A stretch of DNA of 64,000 nt, from the NCBI GenBank assembly GCA_028276365.1, contig JAPYWL010000002.1, forward strand, positions 1 to 64,000, in the 5' to 3' direction. Of the stretch, positions 13,090 to 52,973 are shown piece by piece. The notes below the pieces were generated by a model, which ran no database searches, was not told the DNA's origin, and worked only from the letters and a program-made list of their open reading frames with translations. How positions within the stretch are numbered: position 1 is the first letter of the stretch; every line of letters starts with the position of its first letter. Source of the DNA: Deltaproteobacteria bacterium (GTDB taxonomy: Bacteria; DRYD01). The translations under genes were made by a program, and so were the position numbers.

Positions 13090-13112
13090 TTTTAAATGTA
13101 AAAAAAATGTTA
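13090..13112 (-). promoter_or_regulatory. shared upstream element TTAACA-N6-TTACATT (unit 1)
   Basis: On the minus strand this reads TTAACA, six T, then TTACATT followed by TAAA. It is identical over 23 nt to plus-strand 27945-27967, before another gene of the same protein type. The core ends 71 nt before the ATG at 13022. A TATAAT box lies at 13071-13076 (minus strand), so TTTACA could act as a -35 with a long spacer, or the element could be an activator or repressor site. Nothing else in the window outside the four listed copies matches both half-motifs at this spacing. Confidence 0.65.
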
Positions 13113-13390
13113 AAAAACAATATTAAAGCAGGCTTACTAAACTAATGAAATTAGTAAGAAGATATTTACATCTTTTATAGTGTTATAATTTTATACTTTT
13201 GAAAACTCGGTTAATTTCAAAAGGAAAATTTTAACTGATGTTAAAGATATAACTAGTAATATACTTGAATAGATTTTATTTAATAAATTATAAAAAATTT
13301 TAAGGAGGTGTTTAGCAACACTAACGGTTTGACAAAAAAAATTATATCCTTTGCTATACTTTCCTTTTATTTTCAACAACTTAAAATGCG
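13113..13390 (+). other. AT-rich CRISPR leader region
   Basis: This stretch holds no convincing gene; a 62-codon minus-strand frame here has no family features. It lies at the end of the array with perfect repeats, where a leader is expected. TTGACA at 13329-13334 and an extended -10 TGcTATACT ending at 13360 face into the array. The 20-nt spacing is long, so the extended -10 may be the main element. This is a plausible promoter for the pre-crRNA, starting a few bases before the first repeat at 13391. Confidence 0.5.
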
Positions 13391-13879
13391 GTCTTAATAT
13401 GCCAATGAGGAATTTAAAGAAATCTAATGTTTTAACTTTTTCTTTGATTTTTTCTTTGTCTTAATATGCCAATGAGGAATTTAAAGATTATTTCTGTTAA
13501 GTTAAAATTCAAGTTTTCTAAAGTCTTAATATGCCAATGAGGAATTTAAAGTCATTAAATTTTATTCTAAACCTTGTTAAATTTTTGTCTTAATATGCCA
13601 ATGAGGAATTTAAAGTTTCCATATTTGAATTACTTCGCTAAAAGCTAAATTAAGTCTTAATATGCCAATGAGGAATTTAAAGTTTTTATTAACTTAATAA
13701 AAAAATATGTTCCAGCAGTGTTTTAATATGCCAATGAAGAATTTAAAGTTCTTTGAAGTTAATCATTTTGTCTTAATTTATTGTAGTTTTAATATGCCAA
13801 TGAGTAATTTAAAGATCTTTGTAAATATAAGTTCTGGTTCCATTCTATTTATTTTAATATGCCAATGAGGGATTTAAAC
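13391..13879 (+). CRISPR. CRISPR array, 8 repeats of 29 nt and 7 spacers, no adjacent cas genes
   Basis: Repeats start at 13391, 13458, 13523, 13587, 13654, 13720, 13786 and 13851. The first five are identical: GTCTTAATATGCCAATGAGG followed by AATTTAAAG. The last three begin with TTTTAAT in place of TCTTAAT after the first base and carry further changes (AAGAA, AGTAA, and a terminal GGGATTTAAAC). Spacers are 35-38 nt. Degeneration at the right end and the 3' AATTTAAAG (like the ATTGAAAx handle of type I-B/III repeats) put the leader on the left and transcription on the plus strand. No cas gene is encoded within the window, so the processing enzymes must be elsewhere. tdk begins about 100 nt after the last repeat. 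Confidence 0.98.
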
Positions 13880-13981
13880 ATATTGAAAGGGTAGGACCTT
13901 ATTTTCAAAGAATTTATTAATTAGAATTTCAAAAATTAAGAATTTAAAAATACACTTGTAAAAAACAAGAGGTGATAAAAT

Positions 13982-14575
13982 ATGAAATTTGAGATGACAA
14001 AATATGAAGGCGGGTGGATTGAAGTAATAGTAGGCTGTATGTTTAGTGGTAAAAGTGAAGAATTAATTAGAAGAATAAAAAGAGCAATAATAGCTAATCA
14101 AAAAGCTATCGTATTTAAACCTCAAATAGATAATAGATATGAAACTGATAAGGTAGTTAGCCACAATGGAATAAGTATAAAAGCAGTAGTAGTCAATAAT
14201 GCCAATGAAATTAAAGGAATAGCAGAAAATTACGATGTTATAGGGATAGATGAAGCTCAATTTTTTGATAACTCGCTAATAAATATAGTAGAAGACTTAG
14301 CTGACAATGGTAAAAGAGTAATAATAGCAGGCTTAGACCAAGATTTTAGAGGAGAACCATTTGGAATAATCCCTCATTTAATGGCTATAGCTGATAGTGT
14401 AGATAAACTACACGCTATATGTGTAGTATGTGGAGCTGTAGCTACTAAAAGTCAGAGATTGATAAATGATAAACCAGCTTCTTATAATGATCCTACAATA
14501 TTAGTAGGTTCAAAAGAAGTTTATCAGCCTCGATGTAGAAAATGCTATAATAAACCCATCAAAGTCCTTAATTAA
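13982..14575 (+). CDS. tdk: thymidine kinase (type II)
   Basis: This 197-residue type II thymidine kinase phosphorylates thymidine with ATP in nucleotide salvage. The P-loop is [18 protein letters not shown] (residues 18-35). The lasso and Mg region is IDEAQFFD near 90, and [10 protein letters not shown] is the flavin-like loop of the family. The zinc site is formed by CVVCG and CRKCY, with the substrate lasso between them. It has a good ribosome site (GAGGTGATAAAATATG). A short inverted repeat, CTTGT/ACAAG, lies just before it at about 13952-13966. It stands alone between the CRISPR array and a 228-nt gap. Confidence 0.96.
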
Positions 14576-14803
14576 CTAATATATTATAAAAGGAAATCTA
14601 CATTAAAAAACCAATTCTATAAATAGAAATCTTAAAACCTTAAAAATTTAATTTTAATTAGTTTTATAATTTTAACAAAAAAGGCAATAGCATCGATCTT
14701 GTAGAAGGTAGAGATGAATTGATAAACAAGGTACTTATTTTAGACTATAGTTATTACTAAGGAACCTAAGTATTAAATAGCTTTGAAGTTAAGCCTTTAA
14801 ATT

Positions 14804-15403
14804 ATGACTATAAAACACTATTTTAAATTAAACGATAATATAATAGAAATTGAATTTGAAGCAATTGATAATGAAATAGAAATAAAAAAAATTGAGCAAA
14901 TCCAAAAACAAGACCTTAATGCTACTAATTTAGAAATAATAGATTATAAAGATAATACAAACTACATAGAAGTTATATTTAAAATGGAAAATGAAGTAAA
15001 AAAAGCTTTTATTTTAGATAATAATATATATCTCTTAGAAGATAATTTAATAAAATACGAAATAAAAGATTTATCAGATAAAAAATTAACTTTTAAGAAC
15101 TACACTTTAGAACAAAATATAACCCAGATTGAAAATATTACTACTGCTAATATAAAAAACAATGTAAAAAAGGAAAATAATAAATATTATTTAGTACCAC
15201 CATTATCAGGAAAAATAGAAAAAATAAACGTAAAAGAAGGAGATATAATAGAGCCAAATACAAATGCTATAATAATATCTGCAATGAAAATGGAAAATAA
15301 TATAGAGGTTTTTGAAAAATACAAAGTATTAAAAATCTTAGTTAAAGAAGGAGATTTTGTACAAATAAACCAAAACTTAATAGAATTGGAATTAATAAAT
15401 TAG
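14804..15403 (+). CDS. biotin carboxyl carrier-type protein
   Basis: This 199-residue protein has a C-terminal biotinyl domain. PPLSGKIEKINVKEGDIIEP leads to SAMKMENNIEVF, where the Lys between the two Met residues is the expected biotin site, followed by KEGDFVQINQNLIELE. The first about 100 residues are a beta-rich segment like those preceding the carrier domain in propionyl-, methylmalonyl- or oxaloacetate-type carboxylases and decarboxylases. The partner biotin carboxylase and carboxyltransferase subunits are not in the window. The next gene is etfB, 46 nt later. A 10-bp tandem repeat (tagaataaat, three copies, 15401-15430) spans the stop codon and the gap. Confidence 0.85.
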   Translation: MTIKHYFKLNDNIIEIEFEAIDNEIEIKKIEQIQKQDLNATNLEIIDYKDNTNYIEVIFKMENEVKKAFILDNNIYLLEDNLIKYEIKDLSDKKLTFKNYTLEQNITQIENITTANIKNNVKKENNKYYLVPPLSGKIEKINVKEGDIIEPNTNAIIISAMKMENNIEVFEKYKVLKILVKEGDFVQINQNLIELELIN

Positions 15404-15449
15404 AATAAATTAGAATAAATTAGAATAATAAAGAAGGCAGGTTATAAAA

Positions 15450-16220
15450 ATGAAGATAGGAGTTTTAATTAAAGGAGTAATAGATCCTGATGATCCTTTA
15501 TTCATTATAGAAAATAATCAAAGAAAAGGAGATAAAGTAGTTATAAGTACATATGATGAAAATGCTTTAGAAGTAGCCTTAAAACTAAAAGATAAAGATA
15601 ATTCAATAGAAGTTAATGTTATAACAATAACAGATAAAGATTTTTCACAAGGTATAAAAAAAGCCTTAGCAATGGGAGCAGATAAAGCCATTGTTATAAA
15701 TAATTCAGAAAATTTATTCTTAGATACATTTTCTATAGCTAATATCTTATCTAAAATAATAAAAGAAGAAGGATTTGATATTGTTTTAACAGGCTTTGAA
15801 AGTGCAGATTGGTCAAGTAGAACTATTGCTCCTTACTTAGCCGCTAAACTTAATTATAATTATTTAACCTTTTGTCATTACTTAGAACTAATTGAGAATA
15901 ATAATAAAGTATTAGCTTACAAAATTTTTAATGACGATGAATATATAATACAAACTAAATTACCTTCCTTATTTAGTATAACTACTCATCCAAATAATGT
16001 CCCTAGATATCCAAAAGTAAAAGATATTATGTTAGCTTCTAAAAAAACTATTAAAAATTTAAACATATCCGAATTTAAAGATTTAATCAAAAACTATATT
16101 GATTTACATAAAACAGAATTAGTTAATAATGAAATAGAGTGTATGATAATAGAAGGAGATACCCCTGAAGTTAAAGCTCAAAAATTAGTTTCAAAACTTA
16201 AAGAACTTAAAATCATTTAA
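15450..16220 (+). CDS. etfB: electron transfer flavoprotein beta subunit
   Basis: A 256-residue EtfB-like protein. It begins MKIGVLIKGVIDPDDP, followed by VITITDKDFSQGIKKALAMG and ADKAIVINN, which is the adenine-nucleotide binding part. TGFESADWSSRTIAPYLAAK replaces the usual GxxxxDGDTGQVxPxLA segment. EtfB pairs with EtfA to carry electrons between flavin enzymes. No etfA follows; the next gene is an alkaline phosphatase. The partner must be encoded elsewhere, or this protein works differently. The usual etfB-etfA coupling is absent, which is unusual. Confidence 0.85.
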   Translation: MKIGVLIKGVIDPDDPLFIIENNQRKGDKVVISTYDENALEVALKLKDKDNSIEVNVITITDKDFSQGIKKALAMGADKAIVINNSENLFLDTFSIANILSKIIKEEGFDIVLTGFESADWSSRTIAPYLAAKLNYNYLTFCHYLELIENNNKVLAYKIFNDDEYIIQTKLPSLFSITTHPNNVPRYPKVKDIMLASKKTIKNLNISEFKDLIKNYIDLHKTELVNNEIECMIIEGDTPEVKAQKLVSKLKELKII

Positions 16221-16266
16221 TTAAAAACTTACCAAAATTGAAATTATTAAGAAGGAGGTTACAATA

Positions 16267-17430
16267 GTGATCATAATGAATAAATTTTCTAAAAATAGAT
16301 TAGTTGCTATATTATTTTTATTAGCTTTTAGTTTAATCAGTTTAATTTTATTTTTAATTCTTTTAATTTCAAAGATAAAAAGTCAAGAGATAACAAAAGA
16401 TAATAAAAATAGTAAAAGTTTAATTTTAGTAATAGGAGATGGGATGGGATTACCTATTATATCTGCTTGGGATTACTATAAAAAAGATAGTATGGATAAT
16501 AATTATTCAGTATTAGAAAACTTTGATGGTAGTTTTTTAGTAAGGACAAGGAGTAAGGATAAAGTAATAACAGACAGTGCAGCAGCTGCTACCGCATATG
16601 CTACCGGATATAATGTAGATAATTATCAAGTAGGTTTGCTAAAAGATAATAAACGAGTAAAAACAATAATGGATTTAGCAAAAGAAAAAAATAAATCTAC
16701 GGGGATAGTTGTTTTATGTACATTAACTCATGCTACTCCCGCAGCTTTTTATGCTTATTCTGAAAAAAGATCAAATGAAGAACAAATTGCAAAATATCTA
16801 ATTTATTCTAATATAGATGTGGCAATAGGTGGAGGTAAAAAATATTTTAAGAATCTAATCCCTACCTTTAAACAAAAAGGATACACTATATTAGAAAATA
16901 TCAACGAATTAAAAGAAATAAAGCAAAATAAAGAAAAATTAAATAAAACAGAAAAATTATTAGCATTTATAGATGAAAAACATCCCCCAAAACAGGAACT
17001 TAGAAATTACAAACTCTCAGAGTTATCAGAAGTAGCTATAAATATATTATCTAAAAATAAAAATGGATTTTTCTTAATGATAGAAGCAAGTCAAATAGAT
17101 TGGTATGGACATGATAATTTATTTAAAGATCAATTAAATGAAATGAAAGATTATGAAGATACTTTAAATTACTTGTTAAACTATTATAAAACAAATAAAG
17201 ATAATTTAATGATATTAACTTTAGCTGATCATGAATGCGGAGGATTAACTTTAATAGATTACGAAGCTAAAAAACTTGATGATAACTTTAAAATTCATTA
17301 TAGTACTAATTATCACACTGCAGAGCATATTCCAGCTTTCTATAAAGGAATCATAAATTTTAAAATTAATCCCGTAATTAACAATATTGAAGTATTTTCA
17401 ATTATGAAAAAGTACCTAATTGATCAATAA
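16267..17430 (+). CDS. alkaline phosphatase, membrane anchored
   Basis: A 387-residue member of the alkaline phosphatase family that releases phosphate from monoesters outside the cytoplasm. An N-terminal membrane segment (about residues 12-36) is followed by the metal motif VIGDGMG, the nucleophile region TDSAAAATAYATG (Ser after TD), IDWYGHDN and LADHECGGL, and a late His-rich YHTAEHIPAF. All metal-ligand motifs are present. The GTG at 16267 is preferred because GGAGG lies 9 nt upstream; an ATG at 16276 is too far from it. No Pho-box was recognised. Confidence 0.93.
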   Translation: MIIMNKFSKNRLVAILFLLAFSLISLILFLILLISKIKSQEITKDNKNSKSLILVIGDGMGLPIISAWDYYKKDSMDNNYSVLENFDGSFLVRTRSKDKVITDSAAAATAYATGYNVDNYQVGLLKDNKRVKTIMDLAKEKNKSTGIVVLCTLTHATPAAFYAYSEKRSNEEQIAKYLIYSNIDVAIGGGKKYFKNLIPTFKQKGYTILENINELKEIKQNKEKLNKTEKLLAFIDEKHPPKQELRNYKLSELSEVAINILSKNKNGFFLMIEASQIDWYGHDNLFKDQLNEMKDYEDTLNYLLNYYKTNKDNLMILTLADHECGGLTLIDYEAKKLDDNFKIHYSTNYHTAEHIPAFYKGIINFKINPVINNIEVFSIMKKYLIDQ

Positions 17431-17568
17431 AAAGTAGATCTAAGGAAAGTTTTATTGTGATAATTACTATTGTTATATATTTAAAATAAAATAAAAAGGT
17501 AATCTTTTTTATATATTGAATTTTAAAACTGTAAAAAATAAAATTTTTTTTGTATCCCAAAACATAAC

Positions 17569-18723
17569 ATGGATATTTATTTAGATAATTGTAACATAGG
17601 GGAATTAGAGAAGAAGTATGTAATAGAAGCATTAGATAGTGGGTATATTTCTACTAGAGGCCCGTTAGTAAAGAAAGTAGAAGAAGTTTTAGGTGAGTAT
17701 TTAGGAGGTTATGTAGCAGCTACTTACTCAGGTACAGCAGCACTACATCTATCCTTAAAATACGCTATAAAAAAATATAACTTAGATCCTTTAAAAGAAA
17801 AAATAGGGGTAATAATACCTGCTATAACATTTGCTGCTACCTCTCATGCCGCCTTATATAATAACCTTATCCCTGTATTTTGTGATATAGATCCATTTAC
17901 TTTAAATTTAGATCCTAACTCAGCTAATGAAGCCATAAAACTAGCTAAAAGTAAAAGTATAAATGTTAAATTTATCATTCCTGTTCATTTATACGGTAAT
18001 CCCTGTAATATGGATGAAATAATAAAATTGTCAAAAGACTATGATTTAATAATAATAGAAGATGCTGCAGAATCTTTAGCTTCTAAATATAAAGATATAT
18101 TAACTGGTACTTTTGGGGAATTTGGAGCATTTAGCTTTAATGCTAATAAAGTAATAACTGCTTCGTCAGGAGGTATCATTTTTTCAAAAAATAAAGAAGA
18201 CATAGAATATCTGAGATTCCTAACCTTACAAGCAAGAGTAGAAGCTAAAGGGTATTATCATGAAGATTTAGGTTATAATTATAGAATGACCAACATAGAA
18301 GCTGCAATATTATTAGCTCAATTTGAAAAATTAAACTATTTTCTTAACTTAAAGAAAAACTTCTTTAAAATATATTTTGATTATTTTAAAAATTATTTTG
18401 AATTATTAAGGTTTCAACAAACTACTCAAAATTCAACTACTAATTACTGGTTAATAACTGTCGTTTTTAATAAAAAGCTAAATATTACTGAATTTCAAAA
18501 AAAACTAAGCGAATATAATATACCAACAAGAAGAATATTTTATCCGCTTCCTTTAATGGAATTTTATAAGAAATATCAATTAACCGAAAACTTAGAAGAT
18601 TTTTATAAAAACTCAATTTATATTTATAATTATGGACTAAATTTACCATCCTCTACTAAAAATGATTATAGTGCTATAGAATATACAGCTAAAAAAGTTA
18701 TTGAATTAATATCCTTAATATAG
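17569..18723 (+). CDS. DegT/DnrJ/EryC1/StrS-family sugar aminotransferase
   Basis: A 384-residue PLP enzyme of the DegT family, which transaminates nucleotide-linked keto-sugars for surface glycans. Visible motifs are YSGTAALHLSLKY, VIIPAITFAATSHAALY and FCDIDPFTLNLDP. The PLP Asp is in IIEDAAESL, and the PLP Lys in FSFNANKVITASSGG. DLGYNYRMTNIEAAI matches the family GxNxRMxxxxAA. The C-terminus has the usual RRIFYPLP. Its product cannot be assigned. No glycan cluster surrounds it, although a diverged homologue lies at 41661-42872. Confidence 0.9.
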   Translation: MDIYLDNCNIGELEKKYVIEALDSGYISTRGPLVKKVEEVLGEYLGGYVAATYSGTAALHLSLKYAIKKYNLDPLKEKIGVIIPAITFAATSHAALYNNLIPVFCDIDPFTLNLDPNSANEAIKLAKSKSINVKFIIPVHLYGNPCNMDEIIKLSKDYDLIIIEDAAESLASKYKDILTGTFGEFGAFSFNANKVITASSGGIIFSKNKEDIEYLRFLTLQARVEAKGYYHEDLGYNYRMTNIEAAILLAQFEKLNYFLNLKKNFFKIYFDYFKNYFELLRFQQTTQNSTTNYWLITVVFNKKLNITEFQKKLSEYNIPTRRIFYPLPLMEFYKKYQLTENLEDFYKNSIYIYNYGLNLPSSTKNDYSAIEYTAKKVIELISLI

Positions 18724-18729
18724 TTTATG

Positions 18730-20073: not shown

Positions 20074-20379
20074 GAATATTTTTTAGCTATTTACAAATTT
20101 ATTTTACCTAAACAAAAATGAATTATCATAAATATTATCTTTATCTCCAAATTAAACTTTTAGATAATTATAACATTGAGGTAAGCTTGTCATTTTTAGA
20201 GTAGTTTTCATTAATTTCCATTTTCTCTTTTAAAAGATGCTCTTCTTTTACTCTATTATATTATCTTTATACATTTATAGTGTCTGAAAAAAGGACCTAA
20301 TAACTTTATTTATTATACCATAGGTAGAGCATTTTTAACTAATTACTTTAAAAGATATATTTTTAATAGAATAGTTTAT
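20074..20379. other. intergenic region, 306 nt
   Basis: No gene is supported here. On the minus strand a stretch of about 28 codons without a stop near 20170-20260 has no recognisable family match and no ribosome site. The region should contain the promoter for the diguanylate cyclase (start 20073, minus). I see no clear -35/-10 pair, terminator or repeat. Confidence 0.4.
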
Positions 20380-21783: not shown

Positions 21784-21813
21784 AAAAACCCCCCTTTTTA
21801 TCAATATTTAATT

Positions 21814-27944: not shown

Positions 27945-27967
27945 TTAACATTTTTTTTACATTTAAA
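27945..27967 (+). promoter_or_regulatory. shared upstream element TTAACA-N6-TTACATT (unit 2)
   Basis: TTAACA (27945-27950), six T, TTACATT (27957-27963) then TAAA. It is identical over 23 nt to the minus-strand copy at 13090-13112 and ends 91 nt before the ATG at 28055. Outside this element the two upstream regions are not similar beyond general AT-richness, so the match is not explained by a long duplication. Confidence 0.65.
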
Positions 27968-28054: not shown

Positions 28055-28837
28055 ATGTCAAAGCTAAATACAGATAATAAAATAAATATAAATTTAACAA
28101 ACGGTAAAGTGAATAATACCATATCAGTAAGCAATAATGAATCAAATAGCAATAACTTAAAAATAGATTTAAATACTAATAGTAATTCCTCATTAACTAA
28201 TAAAGTTAGTGATATATTAGCTTACACTCAAGATGGAGTAAGTAGCTTAACAGAAACAGCACAAACTTTTGTAGAAAATAATCCTGCTTTTATATTCCAA
28301 AAAACAGCAGAGCAATTAAAAAGTTCCATAGTTAGCGGGATATATAGCACTTTTAGTGAAGTAGTAGATAAGGTTTTATTAGGTGCTTTTAGAGGTGTTA
28401 CTTTAGCATTTGATGCTTGGCAATTTATTAAAAAACTAAAAGAAAAACAAAATCTAAAACAAGAATTAGAAAAACTAAATACTTTAATAAATCAAACTAA
28501 TCTTGATAAATCAAACAAAACAGAATTAGAACAAAAAATAAATAAACTACTCAATGATATTGATGAAAATAAACTTGATTTAGGTGTAAATGCTGGTAGA
28601 TTGATAACAGATTTATTAGGAGTAGTAGGATCAATAGCTGCATTAGGATTTTTAGGAGGAGCATTAGCTGCTGCTGCACCATATCTAATTGGAACCGCTT
28701 TAGTAGGAGATATCGCAGGAATATCCTATTATGCCTATAAAGCTATTAAAAACGGGGTTAATTCTTTCCAACAAAAATTAGCCCAACGAAGAGAACTTGA
28801 ACTAAAACAAAAAGAAGCTCAAATCAAAAATACTTAA
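28055..28837 (+). CDS. glycine-rich hydrophobic protein with coiled coil (260 aa)
   Basis: Unrecognised protein. It starts MSKLNTDNKININLTNGKVN with a highly Asn/Ser-rich polar N-terminus of about 50 residues and no signal peptide. The middle contains a hydrophobic amphipathic part (SGIYSTFSEVVDKVLLGAFR), then a heptad-like coiled coil (about residues 132-170: KKLKEKQNLKQELEKLNTLI and following). Near 190-230 is a Gly/Ala-rich membrane-like hairpin (LLGVVGSIAALGFLGG, ALAAAAPYLIGTALVGDIAG), then a basic/Gln-rich tail. The ATG at 28055 is chosen because GGGAGGG lies just before it; the ATG at 28040 overlaps that ribosome site. A terminator follows at 28863. It shares its upstream element with the operon at 13022. 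Confidence 0.7.
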   Translation: MSKLNTDNKININLTNGKVNNTISVSNNESNSNNLKIDLNTNSNSSLTNKVSDILAYTQDGVSSLTETAQTFVENNPAFIFQKTAEQLKSSIVSGIYSTFSEVVDKVLLGAFRGVTLAFDAWQFIKKLKEKQNLKQELEKLNTLINQTNLDKSNKTELEQKINKLLNDIDENKLDLGVNAGRLITDLLGVVGSIAALGFLGGALAAAAPYLIGTALVGDIAGISYYAYKAIKNGVNSFQQKLAQRRELELKQKEAQIKNT

Positions 28838-31489: not shown

Positions 31490-33013
31490 TTATTTTACCT
31501 TCTTATATTCAAAATTCACTATTTGTTTTTTAGTTTTATCAAGTTCTATCCCTATTATGTAGATCTTATCATAATTTAAATATTTTTTATAATATTCTTT
31601 TTCTTTTATTTGTTTTAAAGCTTTCCCTTTTTCTTTCTCATCTTTTAGCACTTTGAATTCTATTATATACGCTATGCTCTTATTTAACAATATTGTTAAA
31701 TCTATTCTCCCTTTTGAAGTGTTATCTTCTATTATTACATTAAAACCTGTAGAATATATTAATCCATAAATTGCTGCTTGATATACATACTCATTTCTAA
31801 GTATATTATAACTTATTGAATTAATAAAAATTTCTATTTGTTCCTTTATTTTTTCTATTTCCTCATTTATTATTGCTATCTTTAAATTATATATTCTATC
31901 TGTATGATAGCTCTTAGTTATATAGAATACTAAATCTCTGTTAAACGATTGTCTTACTTCTTTATTTGGATAATCCAAAAGATACATCTCTTCCGATTCT
32001 ATTGTTTTTACTTCTTTTATTGTTAAATATCCAGTTTGAAACATTAGCGCTTCTATGCTTATATGCTCTATATCAAATTTATCTAATATATCACTGGTAT
32101 AATATAATTTATTTAGATAAGGAAGCTCATAGTTTCTAGTTTTTAAAAGCTTAAATAAGAATTCACTCTTTCCTGTTTCATACCAATAATTCCTCAATAC
32201 TTTATTTTTCAAATATAACAACATATCAAAAGGATTATAAAGTGTATCTTGTAAGAAATAATATCCATTATACCATTCTTTAATTTCTTCTAAATTTAGA
32301 TTATCTAAATAGTCTTTAAAATATAATTCTAATTCTTTTTGAGTATAACCGCATATATTTCCATATTCTTTATTTAGTGAGATATCTTCTAACTGATTTA
32401 ATCCACTAAATAGAGATACTTTTGAGAATTTACTTACCCCTGTTATTAAGACAAACCTTATATATTTATCTAAGCCTTTTAGAACAGAATAGAATGCTTT
32501 TAGCTGTTTTCTAATATTTTGAGCTTGTTTGATATATTCTATTAGATCTAGTATAGGCTTATCATATTCATCTACCAATACTACTACTTGCTTTCCATAG
32601 CTTTTATATATAGTTATTATCAACTTTTCAAATAAGCTTATCTCATCTTCTCCTTTTTCCAACATCTCTATTCCATTATTAATATAGTTCTTTTCCAGTT
32701 CTTGTATTACCCTTTTTTTATAGTCTTCTTTTTTTAGTATATCTTTTGAAAAATCTATTCTTATTACTGGATAAACCTCTTCCCAATTAAATTTATCTTG
32801 TATATATAAACCTTTAAATAATTCTTCTTCTCCTTTAAATAGATATTCGAGTGTAGAAATTAGTAAAGATTTCCCAAAACGTCTTGGCCTACTTAAAAAG
32901 TAATATTTCCCACTATTTATTAATTTATAAATATACTCTGTTTTATCCACATATATATAATTTCCTTGAATTAATTCCTTAAAATCACTTATCCCTACAC
33001 TTAACTTCTTCAT
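31490..33013 (-). CDS. AAA-ATPase / PD-(D/E)XK nuclease-like protein, copy A
   Basis: This 507-residue protein belongs to the family with an N-terminal AAA-ATPase-like domain and a C-terminal PD-(D/E)XK nuclease-like domain (formerly DUF1703). Walker A is SRPRRFGKSLLISTLEY (residues about 39-55), and Walker B is VVLVDEYDKPILD. The sensor region is VLITGVSKFSKVSLFSGLNQ. The C-terminal nuclease core reads GRIDLTILLNKSIAYIIEFK, with the D and ExK residues. Such genes are repeated in many thermophile and anaerobe genomes and their role is not settled; defence or mobile-element functions are suggested. It is highly similar to copy B at 33670-35199. Confidence 0.9.
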   Translation of the reverse strand: MKKLSVGISDFKELIQGNYIYVDKTEYIYKLINSGKYYFLSRPRRFGKSLLISTLEYLFKGEEELFKGLYIQDKFNWEEVYPVIRIDFSKDILKKEDYKKRVIQELEKNYINNGIEMLEKGEDEISLFEKLIITIYKSYGKQVVVLVDEYDKPILDLIEYIKQAQNIRKQLKAFYSVLKGLDKYIRFVLITGVSKFSKVSLFSGLNQLEDISLNKEYGNICGYTQKELELYFKDYLDNLNLEEIKEWYNGYYFLQDTLYNPFDMLLYLKNKVLRNYWYETGKSEFLFKLLKTRNYELPYLNKLYYTSDILDKFDIEHISIEALMFQTGYLTIKEVKTIESEEMYLLDYPNKEVRQSFNRDLVFYITKSYHTDRIYNLKIAIINEEIEKIKEQIEIFINSISYNILRNEYVYQAAIYGLIYSTGFNVIIEDNTSKGRIDLTILLNKSIAYIIEFKVLKDEKEKGKALKQIKEKEYYKKYLNYDKIYIIGIELDKTKKQIVNFEYKKVK

Positions 33014-33669: not shown

Positions 33670-35199
33670 TTATTTAATTTGTTGATATTCAAAATTAACA
33701 ATTTGTTTTTTTGTTTTATCAAGTTCTATTCCTATTATGTAGATTTTATCATAATCTAAATATTTTTTGTAATATTCTTTTTCTTTTATTTGTTTTAAAG
33801 CTTTTCCCTTCTCTTTTTCATTTTCTATTACCTTAAATTCAAGAATATAAACAATAGAATTATTAACTATAACAGTTAAATCAATTCTACCTTTAGAAGT
33901 ATTATCTTCTGTTATTACATTTAAACCAGTAGAATAAAGCAAAACAAAAACAGCTAATACATAACTTGCTTCATTTCCTAAATACATATAACTTATATTG
34001 CTTATTAATATTTCCAGTTTTTCTTTTAGTTTTTTTATCTCTTCTTTTTTTAATATTGTTATTATTTCATCTACTAGTTTATATCTTACCTCTTCTTTTA
34101 TTGTAAATTCTAATATGTTTTCATTAAATGAGATTTTTACTTCTTTATTAGGGAAGCCCAGTTTATATTCTTGTCCATATTCCTTTTTATAAACTTCCTT
34201 AATAGTTAAATAACCAGTTTGAAACATTAATGCTTCTATCTTTATTTCTTCTATATCAAATTTTTCTAAGATGTTTTCTCTTAGTATAATATTATCTAAT
34301 TTAGTTATATCATATTTTTGTTGCTTTATTAGTTTTATTAGAAAAGTTGGTGTACCTGTTTTGTACCAATAACTCCTAAATTCTCTATTCTTTAAATATA
34401 ACAATATGTCAAAAGGATTATAAAGTGTATCTTGTAAGAAATAATATCCATTATACCATTCTTTAATTTCTTCTAAATTTAGTTTTTCTAAATAGTCTTT
34501 AAAATACAATTCTAATTCTTTTTGAGTATAACCACATATATTCCCATATTCTTTATTAAAGGAAATATCTTCTAATTGATTTAATCCACTAAATAATGAC
34601 ACTTTTGAAAATTTGCTTACCCCTGTTATTAGCATAAACCTTATGTATTTATCTAAGCCTTTTAGAGTTGTATAAAATCCTTTTAATGTTTCTCTTATTT
34701 TTTCTACCTCTTTTTTCTTTTCTATATTATCTAGTATCGGTTTATCATACTCGTCTATTAATATTATCATCTGTTTTTTACTTACTTCGTAAATCTTTTC
34801 TATTAATAACCTTAAATTCCTATTTATTGTATATTCTTCATTGTATTCATAACTATATACTTTCCCTGTTTCAATTATTATTGCTTTTAGCTCCTTTTCC
34901 AATTCCCTTCCGTTTCTTACCTGTGTATCTCCAAAATCTATCCTTATTACTGGATACTTCTCTTCCCAATTCCATTTATCGTAGATATATAAGTTTTTAA
35001 ATATTTCTTTTTCTCCTCTAGATAAATATTCTACTGTTGAAATTAATAAAGATTTTCCAAAACGTCTAGGACGGCTTAAAAAGTAATATCCTCCACCTTC
35101 TGTTATTAATTTATATATGTACTGAGTTTTATCTACATATATAAAATTTTCTTCCCTTAGTTTTTTGAAATCACTTATTCCTATTGGTAATTTTCTCAT
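33670..35199 (-). CDS. AAA-ATPase / PD-(D/E)XK nuclease-like protein, copy B
   Basis: A 509-residue paralogue of the protein at 31490-33013. It has Walker A SRPRRFGKSLLISTVEYLS, Walker B IILIDEYDKPILD, the sensor segment LITGVSKFSKVSLFSGLNQL and the nuclease core GRIDLTVIVNNSIVYILEFK. The two proteins are nearly identical at the Walker regions, mid-domain (residues about 200-255) and extreme C-terminus, but differ strongly at about 75-150 and 290-420. This is uneven divergence that suggests recombination between copies. Both are followed (minus direction) by the T16-17 element and a lipoprotein gene; copy A has the GNAT gene in between. Confidence 0.9.
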   Translation of the reverse strand: MRKLPIGISDFKKLREENFIYVDKTQYIYKLITEGGGYYFLSRPRRFGKSLLISTVEYLSRGEKEIFKNLYIYDKWNWEEKYPVIRIDFGDTQVRNGRELEKELKAIIIETGKVYSYEYNEEYTINRNLRLLIEKIYEVSKKQMIILIDEYDKPILDNIEKKKEVEKIRETLKGFYTTLKGLDKYIRFMLITGVSKFSKVSLFSGLNQLEDISFNKEYGNICGYTQKELELYFKDYLEKLNLEEIKEWYNGYYFLQDTLYNPFDILLYLKNREFRSYWYKTGTPTFLIKLIKQQKYDITKLDNIILRENILEKFDIEEIKIEALMFQTGYLTIKEVYKKEYGQEYKLGFPNKEVKISFNENILEFTIKEEVRYKLVDEIITILKKEEIKKLKEKLEILISNISYMYLGNEASYVLAVFVLLYSTGLNVITEDNTSKGRIDLTVIVNNSIVYILEFKVIENEKEKGKALKQIKEKEYYKKYLDYDKIYIIGIELDKTKKQIVNFEYQQIK

Positions 35200-42911: not shown

Positions 42912-42930
42912 TTAACATAAATTTTACATT
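42912..42930 (+). promoter_or_regulatory. shared upstream element TTAACA-N6-TTACATT (unit 3)
   Basis: TTAACA (42912-42917), TAAATT, TTACATT (42924-42930). The core half-motifs and 6-nt spacing are those of the copies at 13094, 27945 and 52331, but the N6 differs. It ends 78 nt before the ATG at 43009. A separate TATAAA at 42975-42980 may be the -10, in which case the element would be upstream of the core promoter. Confidence 0.55.
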
Positions 42931-43008: not shown

Positions 43009-44466
43009 ATGGAAATAAAAAATAATACAAATGCCTTAAATGTAAATAATAAAATAGAAAACTTAAATAATAAAAATGAAATTTTATCAAATTTTATAAA
43101 TTCCCAAAACAGTGAAATATTAAAAATTTTAGACCAAATAGATTTAACTAAAATAAATGAAAATCTAAAAAATTTAGCAAATACGATAAAGGAAAAAATA
43201 AATAAAGAGCTAAAAGAATTTAAAAACACTCCTGTATCAAAAGAGTTAAATCCTTCATTATTAAGAGGTTTAATTTCAAGTGGAATACTAAGCAGTATTT
43301 TTCTTTTAGGTAATCCCTTTTTAGCTTTGGTACCGTTATTATCCACAGCAATATCATATAAAATCGGTGAGAAAATTGAAAATCCATTATATTCATTAAT
43401 ATCATCTTTTACTCTACCACTTGCTATAAACTCACTTATCTTATTATCAAACTCTATAAATCCCATAAATTCTATTTCATTATTATTAACCTCATCCATC
43501 ATATCTACAGTAGGATTATTAAACTCAACTACCTCCAAAGAGGTAAATGATATAAAAAACTTTTCAATGCAAACTTTACCTATTAATTATCTTTTAGGTA
43601 TTCCATTAACAGTAAATTTAGTATCAAACTTTTCTTCAAGTTTAAGTAGTATATTTGAGATGGATGAAAATAAAAAAATAATATTTTCAACATTACTAAA
43701 TATAGGATTATCATCGTTATTAGCTTTACCTTTTGGTATTACTAATTTTGCTATATTTAGTGCTTTAAGTTCTTTATATTCGATTATCAATTTAAAAGCT
43801 GCTTCCAAAATTGAAAATTTACTAAATAAATCACAAAATTACTTATCAAATAAAATATCTAATTTCTTAAAAGATAAACTAAGTTTTTTAAGAAAATTAC
43901 CAACAGCTTTAAGGTCTTTAATTGCAGGTTTAACAATAGGTGGATTAAGCTCATTATCTACTTCAATATTAGCTGGATTACTAAATCCAATTTTAGGGCC
44001 ATTAAGCTTTGCTATCCCCTTAGCTACTTTCTTAATAACTACATTCTCCACTACTAAATCATTCTATACAATGCTAAAAGCTAAAGAACAATCACTAAAA
44101 ATTATAAATGATTTAGAATCATTAATAGAAAATAATCAAATTTCTAAAGCAGTCCAAACCTATAAAGATCACTTGCTAAATAATAATTCAAAAATGGATT
44201 TATCAAAAGTATCAGATGAAGAATTAAAAATATCAATGTTCAATGAATTAATACAATATCATTTAGCTAAGATGATATATTATTATAATGATAAAAAACT
44301 AAGTGAAGCTATAAAAGAGTTTAAATATATCCAATTTTTACAATTACTCTTTAATACCAATGATATAACCAAAGCTAAAGAAATAGCTGATAACCTTGAT
44401 AAAGATCAAGCTCTTAAAGCTATTGAAAACTTTATTAATTCTTTAAATAATGCTAACCCCCATTAG
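43009..44466 (+). CDS. multi-hydrophobic protein of the Asn-rich N-terminus group (485 aa)
   Basis: Unrecognised protein. The N-terminal about 45 residues are extremely Asn/Lys-rich (MEIKNNTNALNVNNKIENLN) with no signal peptide. An amphipathic helix (LKNLANTIKEKINKELKEF) follows, like VQEFANQLKEKI in the 626-residue protein. Then come repeated hydrophobic Ser/Gly/Leu segments (about 85-350), including LRSLIAGLTIGGLSSLSTSI and LGPLSFAIPLATFLITT. The C-terminal about 120 residues are soluble and helical with TPR-like pairs (LAKMIYYYNDKKLSEAIKEF; AKEIADNLDKDQALKAIENF). The ribosome site is GAGG. It is probably a membrane protein with both ends in one compartment. It shares the TTAACA/TTACATT element with three other units. 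Confidence 0.7.
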   Translation: MEIKNNTNALNVNNKIENLNNKNEILSNFINSQNSEILKILDQIDLTKINENLKNLANTIKEKINKELKEFKNTPVSKELNPSLLRGLISSGILSSIFLLGNPFLALVPLLSTAISYKIGEKIENPLYSLISSFTLPLAINSLILLSNSINPINSISLLLTSSIISTVGLLNSTTSKEVNDIKNFSMQTLPINYLLGIPLTVNLVSNFSSSLSSIFEMDENKKIIFSTLLNIGLSSLLALPFGITNFAIFSALSSLYSIINLKAASKIENLLNKSQNYLSNKISNFLKDKLSFLRKLPTALRSLIAGLTIGGLSSLSTSILAGLLNPILGPLSFAIPLATFLITTFSTTKSFYTMLKAKEQSLKIINDLESLIENNQISKAVQTYKDHLLNNNSKMDLSKVSDEELKISMFNELIQYHLAKMIYYYNDKKLSEAIKEFKYIQFLQLLFNTNDITKAKEIADNLDKDQALKAIENFINSLNNANPH

Positions 44467-46027: not shown

Positions 46028-46055
46028 AAATAATTACAAAATAATTAATAAACTA

Positions 46056-46870: not shown

Positions 46871-46879
46871 AAAATATCA

Positions 46880-49141: not shown

Positions 49142-49175
49142 AATTCTATTTTTATTTCACCCTTTTGATTTCGGC

Positions 49176-50423
49176 CTATTTGACATTATTTTTTATACTA
49201 AAAAAATCTTTTAATTTTTCACTTAAATCAGTTTTTTCCCAACTAAGATTTAAATCTTTCCTACCAAAATGACCATACGAAGATAAAGGAGTATATTCAA
49301 CATTAAATAAATCAAAATTTCTAATAATTCCACCAGGTGTTAAATCACATAATTTTTCTATAGCTTTTATTATCTCACTTTCTTCTATAATAGATGTATT
49401 AAAAGTATTAATATAAATAGAAACAGGTTTCTCTTCACCAATAACATAAGCTAACTGAACTTCTACCTTTTTTGCTAAATTAGCTTTCACAATATTTTTA
49501 GCAATATACCTAGCCATATAAGCACCAGTTCTATCCACTTTTGTAGGATCCTTACCAGAAAATGAACCTCCACCATGAGCATATCCACCATAGGTATCTA
49601 CTATTACTTTTCTACCTGTTAATCCGCTATCCGCTCTTGGCCCTCCTATTACAAATTTTCCCGTAGGGTTTATATGAATATTAGTTTTATTACTAAAAAA
49701 ATCTTTATTTAAATTATTTTCTTCAATAAATTCATTTAAGACAGGCTGTATAACAGTCTCTAAAATATCCCTACGTAAATCTTCATATGATTTTCCGTCT
49801 TTATGTTGAGTAGATAAAACTATATCTTTTAGAAAAACAGGTTTAGAATCCTGATAATATATACTTACTTGAGTTTTTCCGTCAGGTCCCAAATAATCTA
49901 ATATCTTCTGTTTTCTAACTTGAGCAAGTCTATAAGCTAACCTATGAGCTAATAAAATAGGGGCAGGCATTAACTCTGCTGTTTCATCACACGCAAATCC
50001 AAACATCATCCCTTGATCTCCTGCTCCAAAATGCCAATCATCATTAACAACATCTTTTCCTCTGATTTCTGCAGGCTTTTCAACTCCTACAGATATATCT
50101 GGAGATTGGGGATCTATTGAAGTTATAACTGCTATATATTCAGGATCATATCCCCATTCTATATTATATCCTATATCCTTTATTGTCTGTCTTACTATTA
50201 AAGGTATATTAACAAAAGATTTAGAAGTAACTTGCCCTACTAATAAACAACCACCAGTAAAGACAATGGTTTCAACTGCAACTCTTGAAAATTCTTTAGG
50301 TTTTCTGTTATTTTTTCTATCTTCTTTTAAATAAGCATCTAAGATGGCATCTGAAATCCTATCAGCTACCTTATCTGGATGCCCCTCAGTAACTGATTCC
50401 GATGTAAATACATATTCCTTCAT
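49176..50423 (-). CDS. metK: S-adenosylmethionine synthetase
   Basis: A 415-residue MetK, which makes SAM from methionine and ATP. It has FTSESVTEGHPDKVADRISD, GAGDQGMMFGFA, NPTGKFVIGGPRADSGLTGR and GGGSFSGKDPTKVDRTGAYM (phosphate loop). All metal- and K-binding motifs are present and the length is near normal (380-400). No SAM or other riboswitch was recognised in the 96 nt upstream, before the DUF948-like gene. Confidence 0.98.
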   Translation of the reverse strand: MKEYVFTSESVTEGHPDKVADRISDAILDAYLKEDRKNNRKPKEFSRVAVETIVFTGGCLLVGQVTSKSFVNIPLIVRQTIKDIGYNIEWGYDPEYIAVITSIDPQSPDISVGVEKPAEIRGKDVVNDDWHFGAGDQGMMFGFACDETAELMPAPILLAHRLAYRLAQVRKQKILDYLGPDGKTQVSIYYQDSKPVFLKDIVLSTQHKDGKSYEDLRRDILETVIQPVLNEFIEENNLNKDFFSNKTNIHINPTGKFVIGGPRADSGLTGRKVIVDTYGGYAHGGGSFSGKDPTKVDRTGAYMARYIAKNIVKANLAKKVEVQLAYVIGEEKPVSIYINTFNTSIIEESEIIKAIEKLCDLTPGGIIRNFDLFNVEYTPLSSYGHFGRKDLNLSWEKTDLSEKLKDFFSIKNNVK

Positions 50424-50519
50424 TATTTTCCTCCCCTTCCACTATATTTTTTTAATTCATTTAGTATTTTACTATAGAAATTCAACAAATGATAAAAAAA
50501 ACCTCTAAATACTATTATT

Positions 50520-50927
50520 TTATTCTTTCTTAATCTTATCTTCTTTATCTTTCTCTGATGACTTTAACACTCTTTTAATCATATCAGTTATAAAAACCAA
50601 CGAATTAGAAGCTATTTTCTGTGTGTTATCCACTAACAACCTTATATTCTTTGTAATAAAGTTAATATCTTCTGTTATATTACCAACATTATTAGATATT
50701 TTTTTAGCATTAGATGTAACCTCTGTTATATTATACAATATTGGCTTAGAATTTTCTATAATTTCTTGTAATTTTCTTAAAGTATTATTAGTTTCATCAA
50801 CAACCGTTATTAATCTATCTATCTTTGAATTTAAATTATTTATAAAATTAACAAGAACAAAGATAAAAAATATAATCGGTATTATTATAATAACAGCTAT
50901 TATTAAAATCAAAGTATTCAAATCCAT
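50520..50927 (-). CDS. DUF948-like membrane-anchored coiled-coil protein
   Basis: This 135-residue protein has one N-terminal membrane helix (about residues 5-29) and a long helical region with heptads (LNSKIDRLITVVDETNNTLR; LQEIIENSKPILYNITEVTS; NAKKISNNVGNITEDINFIT). This is the DUF948 / YtxG-like arrangement, of unknown biochemical role and often linked with the cell envelope or stress. It ends in a Lys/Glu-rich tail. It lies between the zinc-ribbon gene and metK in one direction. Confidence 0.75.
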   Translation of the reverse strand: MDLNTLILIIAVIIIIPIIFFIFVLVNFINNLNSKIDRLITVVDETNNTLRKLQEIIENSKPILYNITEVTSNAKKISNNVGNITEDINFITKNIRLLVDNTQKIASNSLVFITDMIKRVLKSSEKDKEDKIKKE

Positions 50928-50963
50928 TTTATAATCTCCTTTTCTTTTTTAAGTAAATAAAAA

Positions 50964-51458
50964 TTACCATTCATCTTCTTCATCAGAAGATCTATATATT
51001 TTAGAATATTCTTCAAAATTGTCAAATTCAGTAATAGGTAAGCCACAACTAGGGCATTCTTCTAATCTTTTTAAGCGCTCTACCTCAATAATTTCACCAC
51101 AATTAGGACATAATATTAAGTCATCCTCACTAACTAAATACTCCTCATTCTCATTAATAACTTCTTCATCCTCATCTTCATAACCCAAATCCATATCATA
51201 AAGATCCTCAACATCTATTTCATCTAAACTAAATTCTTCTAAATTATTATTATCATCATCATTATCAATGTTTTTCATATCTTCTTTTTTGCTTTTTTTA
51301 GATTTATCAGAATTAGATTTATTAGAAACTACATTTTTAACCAATTCTTTTTCTTCTAATTCATTATTATTTTCATTATTAGTTATATTTTTTTTCTTAG
51401 GTGATTTCTTAAGACTACCATTATTATTATTTTCATTGGCTTTATTTTTTTTAGGCAT
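50964..51458 (-). CDS. acidic low-complexity protein with C-terminal zinc ribbon
   Basis: The first 70 residues are Lys/Asn/Ser/Glu-rich low complexity (KKNKANENNNNGSLKKSPKK). A strongly acidic stretch follows (DEIDVEDLYDMDLGYEDEDE, residues about 78-97). A compact zinc ribbon, CPNCGEIIEVERLKRLEECP with SCG, supplies the four Cys ligands near residues 118-142. The function is not recognised; a small RNA- or polymerase-associated factor would fit but is a guess. Gene order rpe, this gene, DUF948-like, metK suggests an operon. Confidence 0.7.
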   Translation of the reverse strand: MPKKNKANENNNNGSLKKSPKKKNITNNENNNELEEKELVKNVVSNKSNSDKSKKSKKEDMKNIDNDDDNNNLEEFSLDEIDVEDLYDMDLGYEDEDEEVINENEEYLVSEDDLILCPNCGEIIEVERLKRLEECPSCGLPITEFDNFEEYSKIYRSSDEEDEW

Positions 51459-51489
51459 TAAAATCTCCCCCTTACTGTAAAATAAATTA

Positions 51490-52188
51490 CTATATTACTT
51501 TTTGGATTACACTTTTTATTTTTTCAACATTTTTAATAATATTTCCTTTATATAAAAAAGAAGATAAAACAATATAATTAGCCCCAGCTTTTATTACCTT
51601 TTCTATATTTGTATCATTTATCCCTCCATCTACACTAATAAAAACATCATCACAATCCCTTACTATTTCTCTTACTAACGATATCTTAATTAACATATTT
51701 TCAATAAATTTTTGTCCAAAAAAACCAGGATCCACTGTCATAATTAGTATACTATCCACATACCCCCTTAAATATTTCAAAAAATTAATTTCAGTTATAG
51801 GATTTATTGCTATGCCTACTTTTACTTTTAATCCTTTAGTAAATATCATCTCCTTTATATTTTCAATAAATCTAAAAGGAAATCTAACTGCTTCTATATG
51901 AAAATTTAAAATATCAACATACTCAATAACTTCTTTTATATAATTTTCTGGATTATTAACCATCAGATGTATATCTAAAGGTAAATTAGTTATACTTTTT
52001 ATTTTCTTAGCAATAGAAACCCCGAAAGTTATATTAGGAACAAAATTACCATCCATAACATCTAAATGTAAATAATCAACACTAGCTTCCTCAGTTTCTT
52101 TTATTAATTTTTCAATATTATAAAAATCTCCCGCTATTATTGAAGCTGATATCTTTATGTCTTTTATTTTTTTATCTTTTACTTCCAT
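51490..52188 (-). CDS. rpe: ribulose-phosphate 3-epimerase
   Basis: A 232-residue TIM-barrel Rpe of the pentose phosphate pathway (ribulose-5-P to xylulose-5-P). Motifs: ISASIIAGDFYNI, LHLDVMDGNFVPNITFG (catalytic Asp and metal His), LDIHLMVNNPENYI, MTVDPGFFGQKFI, and VDGGINDTNI (second catalytic Asp). All active-site residues are present. It is divergent from the M15-type peptidase gene, with 239 nt between them that contain the fourth TTAACA/TTACATT element. Confidence 0.96.
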   Translation of the reverse strand: MEVKDKKIKDIKISASIIAGDFYNIEKLIKETEEASVDYLHLDVMDGNFVPNITFGVSIAKKIKSITNLPLDIHLMVNNPENYIKEVIEYVDILNFHIEAVRFPFRFIENIKEMIFTKGLKVKVGIAINPITEINFLKYLRGYVDSILIMTVDPGFFGQKFIENMLIKISLVREIVRDCDDVFISVDGGINDTNIEKVIKAGANYIVLSSFLYKGNIIKNVEKIKSVIQKVI

Positions 52189-52330
52189 AATAAACTACTT
52201 TAAATATAAACTTTTTTAACTCCTGGTTTTAATATTTTCCTCTTGGTTTTAATATTTTTTTTTAAAAATAAAAAAAATCCTTCCAAAATTTTATAAATAA
52301 TTTAAAAATCTAATTAGATTTCAAATTAAA

Positions 52331-52349
52331 TTAACAATTAATTTACATT
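52331..52349 (+). promoter_or_regulatory. shared upstream element TTAACA-N6-TTACATT (unit 4)
   Basis: TTAACA (52331-52336), ATTAAT, TTACATT (52343-52349). It lies 78 nt before the ATG at 52428, the same distance as for the copy at 42912. It links the peptidase gene with the three glycine-rich protein units. Upstream of it (52189-52330) is AT-rich sequence without other recognised features. Confidence 0.55.
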
Positions 52350-52427
52350 ATTTTTACTTATTTTTAACTTTTTTAAATCAATAAATAATTAAAATGAGTT
52401 AAATTAATTTTAAGAGGTGTAAAAATT

Positions 52428-52973
52428 ATGAGAGAAATATCCAATAAAATAGAAAACAAAATAAATATAATAGACCAAAAATTTAATAACATAAATACTA
52501 AAATATCAGAAATAGATAATAAATTCGAAACAATTTTTAATAAATCTATTAATCAAAATCAAAATGTTAATCAAAATCAATCAAACCTAGAAGATTTATT
52601 AAAAATATTAAACAATAATAATTCAGTGTTTAGTAATTCACTAAGCAATATAAAAGGGGATAGTATAATAGAGTTTAGGGGCTTTAAAATGAGAGCAGAT
52701 GTAGCAGCTAAATTCCTTCAATTAGAAGAAATGATAAAAAAAGAATTCCCTAACAGACAAATAATACTAACTTCAGGAATGGATGGACAACATATGCCAG
52801 GTAGCAAACATTACGATGGTAAAGCTATAGACTTTGTAGTTGAACCACTTACAATAGAAGAATCCCAAAGAATAGAAGAATTAGCTAAAAAAGCAGGATT
52901 TGATGTATATAACGAATACATATATGACAGCCCCTATAAAACAGGACCCCATATGCATATACAAATCCCATAA
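52428..52973 (+). CDS. M15-type (D-Ala-D-Ala carboxypeptidase/endolysin-like) peptidase with coiled-coil N-terminus
   Basis: This 181-residue protein opens MREISNKIENKINIIDQKFN, a coiled coil of about 45 residues, then an Asn/Gln-rich linker (NQNQNVNQNQSN). The C-terminal domain (about 85-181) has zinc-site motifs of the M15/Hedgehog-fold peptidases: TSGMDGQHMPGSKHYDGKAI (SxHxxGxAxD) and the last His in GPHMHIQIP. Such enzymes cut peptidoglycan stem peptides. There is no signal peptide, so export would need another route or a holin. It stands alone with its own promoter element and a terminator at 53029. Confidence 0.8.
   Translation: MREISNKIENKINIIDQKFNNINTKISEIDNKFETIFNKSINQNQNVNQNQSNLEDLLKILNNNNSVFSNSLSNIKGDSIIEFRGFKMRADVAAKFLQLEEMIKKEFPNRQIILTSGMDGQHMPGSKHYDGKAIDFVVEPLTIEESQRIEELAKKAGFDVYNEYIYDSPYKTGPHMHIQIP

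What the first reader, a model, noticed from the sequence alone, without database searches (positions are those of the whole stretch)
13090..52973. Dispersed regulon: one upstream element, TTAACA-N6-TTACATT, before four transcription units of membrane-like and peptidase proteins
Seen in the sequence: the element occurs at 13094-13112 (minus), 27945-27963, 42912-42930 and 52331-52349, 71, 91, 78 and 78 nt before start codons. Two copies are identical over 23 nt. The genes are three Gly/Ser-rich multi-hydrophobic proteins with Asn-rich N-termini, plus an M15-type peptidase with an Asn-rich coiled coil; none has a signal peptide. By eye the pattern was not found elsewhere in the window. Inference: a co-regulated envelope system, with possible pore-like or holin-like proteins and a wall-cutting enzyme, or a set of proteins exported without Sec signals. 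AT-rich sequence raises the chance of accidental matches, but the fixed spacing and the gene types argue against chance.
Basis: partly seen in the sequence, partly recalled or inferred. Interest (0 to 1): 0.85.

Follow-up and report, generated by a model that had tools for sequence, protein, structure and literature searches.

The report
WalR-like box controls flagellar-type secretion genes
The four matching DNA elements belong to a real genome-wide control switch that governs proteins lacking export signals (wall-cutting enzymes, proteases, hydrophobic proteins) together with parts of a flagellum-like machine that has lost its filament and motor, which suggests an unexplored bacterial group has turned its flagellum into a protein-secretion device.

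Summary
TTAACA-N6-TTACATT occurs exactly four times in the window (0.04 expected) and eight times in the 1.59-Mb genome. Aligning 40 sites gives TTAACATTTTTTTTACATT: two TTWACA half-sites 11 bp apart. Read on the other strand this is TGTAAA-N5-TGTTAA, an exact WalR/VicR box. The genome has one detectable OmpR/PhoB-type regulator, and its DNA-binding domain is closest to WalR. In the own genome 18 sites have a ribosome-binding site and ORF 47-111 nt downstream; 17 of these proteins lack an N-terminal hydrophobic segment. They include M14, M15, S8, C11 and NlpC/P60 peptidases, lytic transglycosylase, polysaccharide deacetylase, Asn-rich coiled coils and hydrophobic proteins. The element also precedes flagellar operons (SLT-SLT-FliK-hook-like; FlgF/G; FlgB-FliE-FlgC). 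All seven genomes of the order keep rod proteins, but none has detectable flagellin, MotB or FlgI. The M15 peptidase shares an N-terminal module with the transglycosylase of the FliK operon, and in a relative it adjoins the gene for the 485-aa hydrophobic protein. Best reading: a WalR-like regulon for a filament-less, motor-less flagellar type III system and its leaderless cargo. Co-regulation is well supported by sequence; export by this machine is inferred and untested.

The parts
13095..13113 (-). WalR/PhoP-type direct-repeat element TTAACATTTTTTTTACATT, 72 nt before the 626-aa gene
   Evidence: PWM score 28.9, trained on sites outside the window; footprint conserved in G001
11142..13022 (-). 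Leaderless 626-aa hydrophobic Gly/Ser-rich protein with an Asn-rich N-terminus (P0001)
   Evidence: 71% identical ortholog in G001 with the element upstream; no significant Pfam family
10384..11100 (-). Second gene of the same unit, 238 aa, Asn-rich leaderless N-terminus
   Evidence: homologs L155:4438-5549 in G002 also lie behind an element
27945..27963 (+). Element TTAACATTTTTTTTACATT, 91 nt before ATG 28055
   Evidence: score 26.1; conserved in G001 and G003
28055..28837 (+). Leaderless 260-aa protein: Asn-rich N-terminus, predicted helices, hydrophobic hairpin (P0002)
   Evidence: orthologs 81% (G001) and 52% (G003), both behind the element
42912..42930 (+). Element TTAACATAAATTTTACATT, 78 nt before the 485-aa gene
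   Evidence: score 18.4
43009..44466 (+). Leaderless 485-aa hydrophobic protein with an Asn-rich N-terminus (P0003)
   Evidence: 37% identical ortholog in G002, directly behind the M15 gene
52331..52369 (+). Element TTAACAATTAATTTACATT extended to four half-sites at 11-bp steps (52331, 52342, 52353, 52364)
   Evidence: three half-sites before the G001 ortholog
52428..52973 (+). Leaderless 181-aa LAS/M15-type metallopeptidase; its N-terminal module is shared with the lytic transglycosylase of the FliK operon (P0004)

Best explanation
The element is the binding site of the genome's WalR/PhoP-like response regulator (L053, 233 aa, followed by a histidine kinase). Two or more regulator protomers bind TTWACA half-sites 11 bp apart and switch on a dispersed regulon. 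The regulon holds rod, hook-like and ruler genes of a flagellar type III export apparatus that has no detectable filament, stator or P ring, together with the proteins it exports. Those cargo proteins have no Sec signal but Asn-rich, probably disordered N-termini. They are peptidoglycan-cutting enzymes that open the wall for the rod (SLT, M15), other hydrolases (M14, S8, C11, NlpC/P60, nuclease, deacetylase), coiled coils, and hydrophobic proteins that may sit in or cross membranes. Shown here: the element, its conservation, its position before cargo-like and flagellar operons, the apparatus genes present, and the failure to find flagellin, MotB and FlgI. Inferred: binding by L053, export through this apparatus, and the role of the hydrophobic proteins.
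For: Exact matches exceed chance. A 40-site alignment shows two C positions 11 bp apart, each in 39 of 40 sites (sites were selected by pattern, so the fixed columns partly reflect that selection, but the T-rich spacer does not). The site equals the footprinted nlmC VicR site TGTAAA-N5-TGTTAA (PMC4168254). One OmpR-type regulator is detectable in the own genome, and the best PDB match of its DNA-binding domain is B. subtilis YycF/WalR, with recognition region RTVDVHIRRLRQKIE vs RTVDVTVRRLREKIE. Of 18 own-genome sites with RBS and ORF, 17 encode proteins with no N-terminal hydrophobic segment, including enzyme families that are normally secreted. Asn in the first 40 residues is 18.5% vs 9.4% in other window genes, p = 1.6e-6 (the regulon set was curated and includes orthologs). 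The element lies before SLT-FliK-coil-hook-like operons in G000 and G001 and FlgF/G in G003 and G005. Weaker sites lie before FlgB-FliE-FlgC and FlgF/G in G000 and G001. FlhA, FlhB, FliG and (G002) FliH-FliI-FliJ are present. Flagellin 0/7, MotB 0/7, FlgI 0/7 while rods 7/7. The M15 N-terminus matches the SLT N-terminus (z 4.1-7.2, against 1.8 or less for nearly all other Asn-rich N-termini). M15 and P0003 are adjacent in G002.
Against: There is no binding, expression or secretion data. At one mismatch a large share of sites is background even in the own genus (36 vs 14 and 36 vs 13), and G005 shows no excess. Some sites precede Sec-signal or other genes (L033, L086, L089, L093; a sigma-factor-like gene in L088; a lysine aminomutase-like gene in L055). 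The weak sites before FlgB and FlgF/G (scores 14-20) lie partly in the range that chance gives now and then. FliG is retained and MotA was not tested, so loss of rotation rests on MotB. Other leaderless-export systems (types I, IV, VI) were not searched. FlgI is absent, so passage through the outer membrane is unexplained. The genomes are 71-90% complete, and a divergent flagellin could be missed.
Confidence: 0.66

Rival explanations
1. A WalR-like regulator controls these genes as an envelope-maintenance regulon; the leaderless proteins are cytoplasmic or leave by another route (type I, IV or VI secretion, or lysis), and the flagellar link is incidental.
For: WalR regulons in Firmicutes are wall-hydrolase regulons, and M15, SLT and NlpC/P60 enzymes are here. 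Other secretion systems were not searched. FlgI is absent, so passage through the outer membrane is unclear.
Against: The element heads operons containing FliK and hook-like genes in two species and FlgF/G in two others. The M15 N-terminus matches that of the SLT of the FliK operon.
Confidence: 0.22
2. The element is a basal promoter or AT-rich upstream sequence common in this 24% GC genome, not a specific regulatory site.
For: The genome is extremely AT-rich. With 2 mismatches counts reach only 23 vs 16 expected, and the backward control also gives 13-31 hits at 1 mismatch in G000-G002.
Against: Exact matches are 100 times expectation in the window, orthologous sites are conserved where flanks have diverged, and downstream genes are strongly biased to leaderless proteins. 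The backward control is nearly mirror-symmetric to the element, so it counts some real sites and is conservative.
Confidence: 0.06
3. The hydrophobic proteins are holin-like or pore-forming lysis proteins acting with the M15 endolysin-like enzyme.
For: M15 folds occur in endolysins; P0001-P0003 have several hydrophobic segments.
Against: Proteins are 260-626 aa with long Asn-rich N-termini and no significant Pfam or NCBIfam family; no phage genes were noticed among the flanking window genes (no dedicated phage-family search was run); orthologs keep the element across genera.
Confidence: 0.03

Closest known systems
WalR/VicR (YycF) regulon of Firmicutes, and the PhoP/PhoB class of boxes
   Same: Same direct repeat TGTWAH-N5-TGTWAH (here TGTAAA-N5-TGTTAA, the nlmC site; PMC4168254), nearly the same recognition helix, wall hydrolases among the targets.
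   Different: Found in an isolated order with outer-membrane-type proteins; targets include flagellar rod/hook/ruler operons and leaderless proteins; the histidine kinase has no obvious membrane segment.
Flagellar type III export apparatus (FlhA/FlhB/FliHIJ, rod, FliK)
   Same: FlhA, FlhB, FliG, FliH, FliI, FliJ, FliE, FlgB, FlgC, FlgF/G, rod-binding FlgJ domain, FliK and a hook-like protein are encoded.
   Different: No flagellin, MotB or FlgI found in any of seven genomes; the hook-like protein is only about 270 aa; genes are scattered.
Buchnera basal bodies
   Same: Basal body plus export gate without flagellin and motor, proposed to secrete proteins (PMC8109811).
   Different: Buchnera has no known secreted cargo and keeps FlgI/FlgH; here there is a candidate cargo regulon and no FlgI.
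Flagellar T3SS of non-flagellated Lysobacter enzymogenes
   Same: Export gate retained without filament or stator; FlgD and antifungal toxins are reported to be secreted (PMC9927559).
   Different: Lysobacter lost rod FlgB/FliE and FliG, which are kept here; here one box links apparatus and cargo.
Non-flagellar T3SS (injectisome), including the Myxococcales form
   Same: Descends from a flagellum that lost motility parts; leaderless cargo (PMC3459982).
   Different: Here true flagellar rods, FliK and a flagellar-type gate (FlhB next to FlhA, with flagellar rod genes elsewhere); secretin not tested.

Membership tests
WalR/PhoP-class regulon | Direct repeat of two TGTWAH half-sites with 5-bp spacer | tested here: met
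   against PMC4168254
WalR/PhoP-class regulon | OmpR/PhoB-type regulator with WalR-like recognition helix in the genome | tested here: met
   single detectable copy in the own genome
WalR/PhoP-class regulon | Regulator binds the element and changes transcription | not testable with these tools
   needs EMSA/footprint and RNA-seq
Flagellar type III apparatus | Export gate FlhA/FlhB and ATPase complex FliH/FliI/FliJ | tested here: met
   FlhA and FlhB in the own genome; FliH-I-J seen in relative G002 only; FliP/Q/R not tested
Flagellar type III apparatus | Rod proteins, FliE, FliK | tested here: met
Complete motile flagellum | Flagellin | tested here: not met
   0 of 7 genomes, controls positive
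Complete motile flagellum | Stator MotB | tested here: not met
   0 of 7 genomes, controls positive; MotA not tested
Complete motile flagellum | P ring FlgI | tested here: not met
   0 of 7 genomes, controls positive
Type III secretion cargo | Exported in an FlhA-dependent way by an N-terminal signal | not testable with these tools
   only composition and co-regulation
Injectisome (non-flagellar T3SS) | Lacks flagellar rod proteins | tested here: not met
   flagellar rods FlgB/C/F/G are present
Injectisome (non-flagellar T3SS) | SctF needle and secretin | not tested
M15/LAS peptidase (P0004) | Zinc motif SxHxxGxAxD plus HxH | tested here: met
   the hedgehog fold relative is the best PDB hit, E 2e-4
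Holin/endolysin cassette | Small holin next to endolysin in a phage region | tested here: not met
   proteins are 260-626 aa, not adjacent to the M15 gene in the window, no holin family hit; phage-family libraries were not searched

The most novel reading that the evidence does not exclude
An entire bacterial order has converted its flagellum into a dedicated secretion machine without filament, stator and P ring, and runs it through a WalR-type box that jointly controls the apparatus and a large set of leaderless effectors (proteases, deiminase, nuclease, transglycosylases, membrane-active proteins), some of which may be delivered into neighbouring cells through translocator-like hydrophobic proteins.
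Probability: 0.4. Interest if true: 0.88.

Novelty: new variant of a known kind. Interest (0 to 1): 0.72.

Why it matters
Flagella are thought to have been turned into secretion systems more than once, but examples of the stage with a motor-less, filament-less flagellar base and a defined cargo are few (Buchnera has no known cargo; Lysobacter is one case). A cis-element that marks cargo and apparatus together gives a direct way to list the cargo from sequence alone and to test secretion. It also places a WalR-type box, known as a cell-wall regulon of Firmicutes, in control of a type III export system in an unrelated, uncultured order.

Tried and rejected
Holin/prophage reading: no support. Sigma-factor promoter reading: no conserved -10 at a fixed distance was found in 40 aligned sites, so the 11-bp direct repeat read as an activator box is preferred. 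AlphaFold models of P0002 (pLDDT 44) and P0001 (pLDDT 33) were too poor for fold searches, so none was run. PDB profile search with P0002 gave nothing. The backward-pattern control proved nearly mirror-symmetric to the element and so is conservative rather than neutral. Taxonomy could not be named: the closest named records are unnamed MAGs, and outside its own order all sampled genomes are only 'same domain'. Literature search found no description of this lineage's system, within a library that lacks most subscription journals. Extra half-sites downstream of the core at +22 and +33 are only weakly enriched over all sites (9 and 6 of 38); clear longer arrays are seen at 52331 and before FlgB in G001. 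Two exact or near-exact sites (L002, L029) have no ORF in the right place, and two (L004, L009) lie in the opposite orientation before leaderless ORFs.
Full report
OBSERVATION. The pattern TTAACA-N6-TTACATT has exactly four matches in the window, against 0.04 expected, and no shuffle reached four. Allowing two mismatches brings the count close to background (23 vs 16.3), so only exact and near-exact sites are informative. In the whole genome (1.59 Mb, 124 contigs, 87% complete; window GC 24%) there are eight exact sites and none of the backward pattern. With TTAACA-N5-TTTACATT and one mismatch there are 36 sites vs 14 control sites.

WHAT THE ELEMENT IS. Forty sites from the own genome and relatives were aligned. 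The consensus is TTAACATTTTTTTTACATT: half-sites TTWACA and TTTACA with an 11-bp step and a T-rich spacer. The alignment was seeded by the pattern, so the fixed columns partly reflect selection; the spacer preference does not. A weight matrix trained only on sites outside the window ranks the four window sites first (28.9, 26.1, 18.7, 18.4; about 0.1 or fewer expected above 14 per 64 kb). The next window hits are further half-sites of the same arrays: at 52331 there are four half-sites in 11-bp register. On the other strand the element reads TGTAAA-N5-TGTTAA. This fits the WalR/VicR consensus TGTWAH-N5-TGTWAH exactly and equals the footprinted S. mutans nlmC site (PMC4168254). The B. subtilis PhoP box (TTNACA repeats) is the same kind of site (own knowledge). 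The own genome has one detectable OmpR/PhoB-type DNA-binding regulator, followed by a histidine kinase gene. Its DNA-binding domain matches B. subtilis YycF/WalR best among solved structures, and the recognition region is nearly identical.

WHAT IT CONTROLS. All own-genome sites with at most one mismatch were tested for an ATG ORF of at least 60 aa starting 35-125 nt downstream. Nineteen have one; one of these has no RBS and lies inside another ORF. Of the remaining 18, 17 proteins have no N-terminal hydrophobic segment, although several belong to families normally exported by Sec: M14 (two), M15, S8, C11, NlpC/P60, SLT, polysaccharide deacetylase. An endonuclease/exonuclease/phosphatase protein follows another site with a GTG start. 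Relatives add a peptidyl-arginine-deiminase-type protein, an acid phosphatase, a GH57 protein and a further M14. RBS sequences directly before the start codons argue against mis-called starts hiding signal peptides. Asn in residues 2-41 is 18.5% vs 9.4% in other window genes (p = 1.6e-6; the set was curated and contains orthologs). Exceptions exist: L033 and its G001 counterpart have a Sec-type signal, and a few G001/G002 sites precede unrelated genes.

CONSERVATION. Orthologs of P0001 (71%), P0002 (81% and 52%) and P0004 (82%) carry the element upstream in G001, and for P0002 also in G003, in otherwise diverged upstream sequence. In G002 the P0003 ortholog (37%) starts about 15 nt after the M15 gene, so two of the four window units form one likely operon there.

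FLAGELLAR LINK. Following the element outside the window leads to flagellar operons. In the own genome and in G001 it heads SLT-(SLT)-FliK-coiled coil-FlgE/F/G-like; in G003 the same operon has a weaker site. In G003 and G005 it lies 37 nt before FlgF/G. Weaker sites precede FlgB-FliE-FlgC and FlgF/G in the own genome and G001. FlhB-FlhA, FliG, FliH-FliI-FliJ (G002) and rods in 7 of 7 genomes are present. Flagellin, MotB and FlgI were found in none of the seven genomes of the order, while control genomes were positive. With completeness of 71-90% each, chance absence of a universally present gene from all seven is very unlikely (about 4e-6 if independent; inference).

N-TERMINAL MODULE. The first 60 residues of the M15 peptidase align with those of the SLT transglycosylase of the FliK operon (z 4.1-7.2) and of its G006 homolog (z 5.9-7.0). 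Nearly all other Asn-rich regulon N-termini score 1.8 or less (one, L034, scores 2.0-3.5). Two unrelated wall-cutting domains thus carry the same leader, as expected if both are delivered to the rod by one export machine (inference).

MECHANISM. Phosphorylated WalR-like regulator binds tandem half-sites upstream of the promoters and activates rod/hook-like/ruler genes and cargo together; the export gate threads leaderless cargo by disordered N-termini; SLT and M15 open the peptidoglycan; other hydrolases act in the periplasm or outside. Binding, export and outer-membrane passage are not shown. The hydrophobic proteins could be membrane-inserting cargo, but structure models were unusable.

COMPARISON AND NOVELTY. 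Parts are known: WalR boxes, flagellar T3SS, basal bodies without filament in Buchnera (PMC8109811), and a working export gate in non-flagellated Lysobacter (PMC9927559). Abby and Rocha note that flagellar systems were probably exapted for secretion more than once (PMC3459982). New here is the combination: a conserved cis-element that joins apparatus and leaderless cargo across an isolated order. I call it a new variant of a known kind.

LIMITS. One-mismatch sites contain much background, and G005 shows no excess. The lineage could not be named.

Noticed in passing
L145:9235-10344 (G000:C100), on the same contig as the regulator gene: Leaderless Asn-rich protein with a RelA/SpoT domain (Pfam E 8e-10), a possible nucleotide-alarmone effector; no strong element was found upstream.
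   Followed up: partly
L076:904-2091 (G001): Leaderless protein of the Porphyromonas-type peptidyl-arginine deiminase family behind the element.
   Followed up: partly
L088 (G001:C37:6537): A one-mismatch element lies 123 nt before a gene that looks like a SigH-type sigma factor (by eye); it could be a relay in the regulon.
   Followed up: no
31490-33013 and 33670-35199; also L137, L054, L145: A repeated gene family beginning LPIGISDFKKL...YVDKT (AAA-ATPase/nuclease-like, by eye) is expanded in the genome.
   Followed up: no
2627-2941, 3344-3673, 7117-7820: Several small nucleotidyltransferase-like ORFs with possible HEPN-type partners, resembling MNT/HEPN toxin-antitoxin pairs (by eye).
   Followed up: no
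L033 and L086: Small Sec-signal proteins with repeats YVSPVYVNPVYVNRVY behind one-mismatch elements.
   Followed up: no
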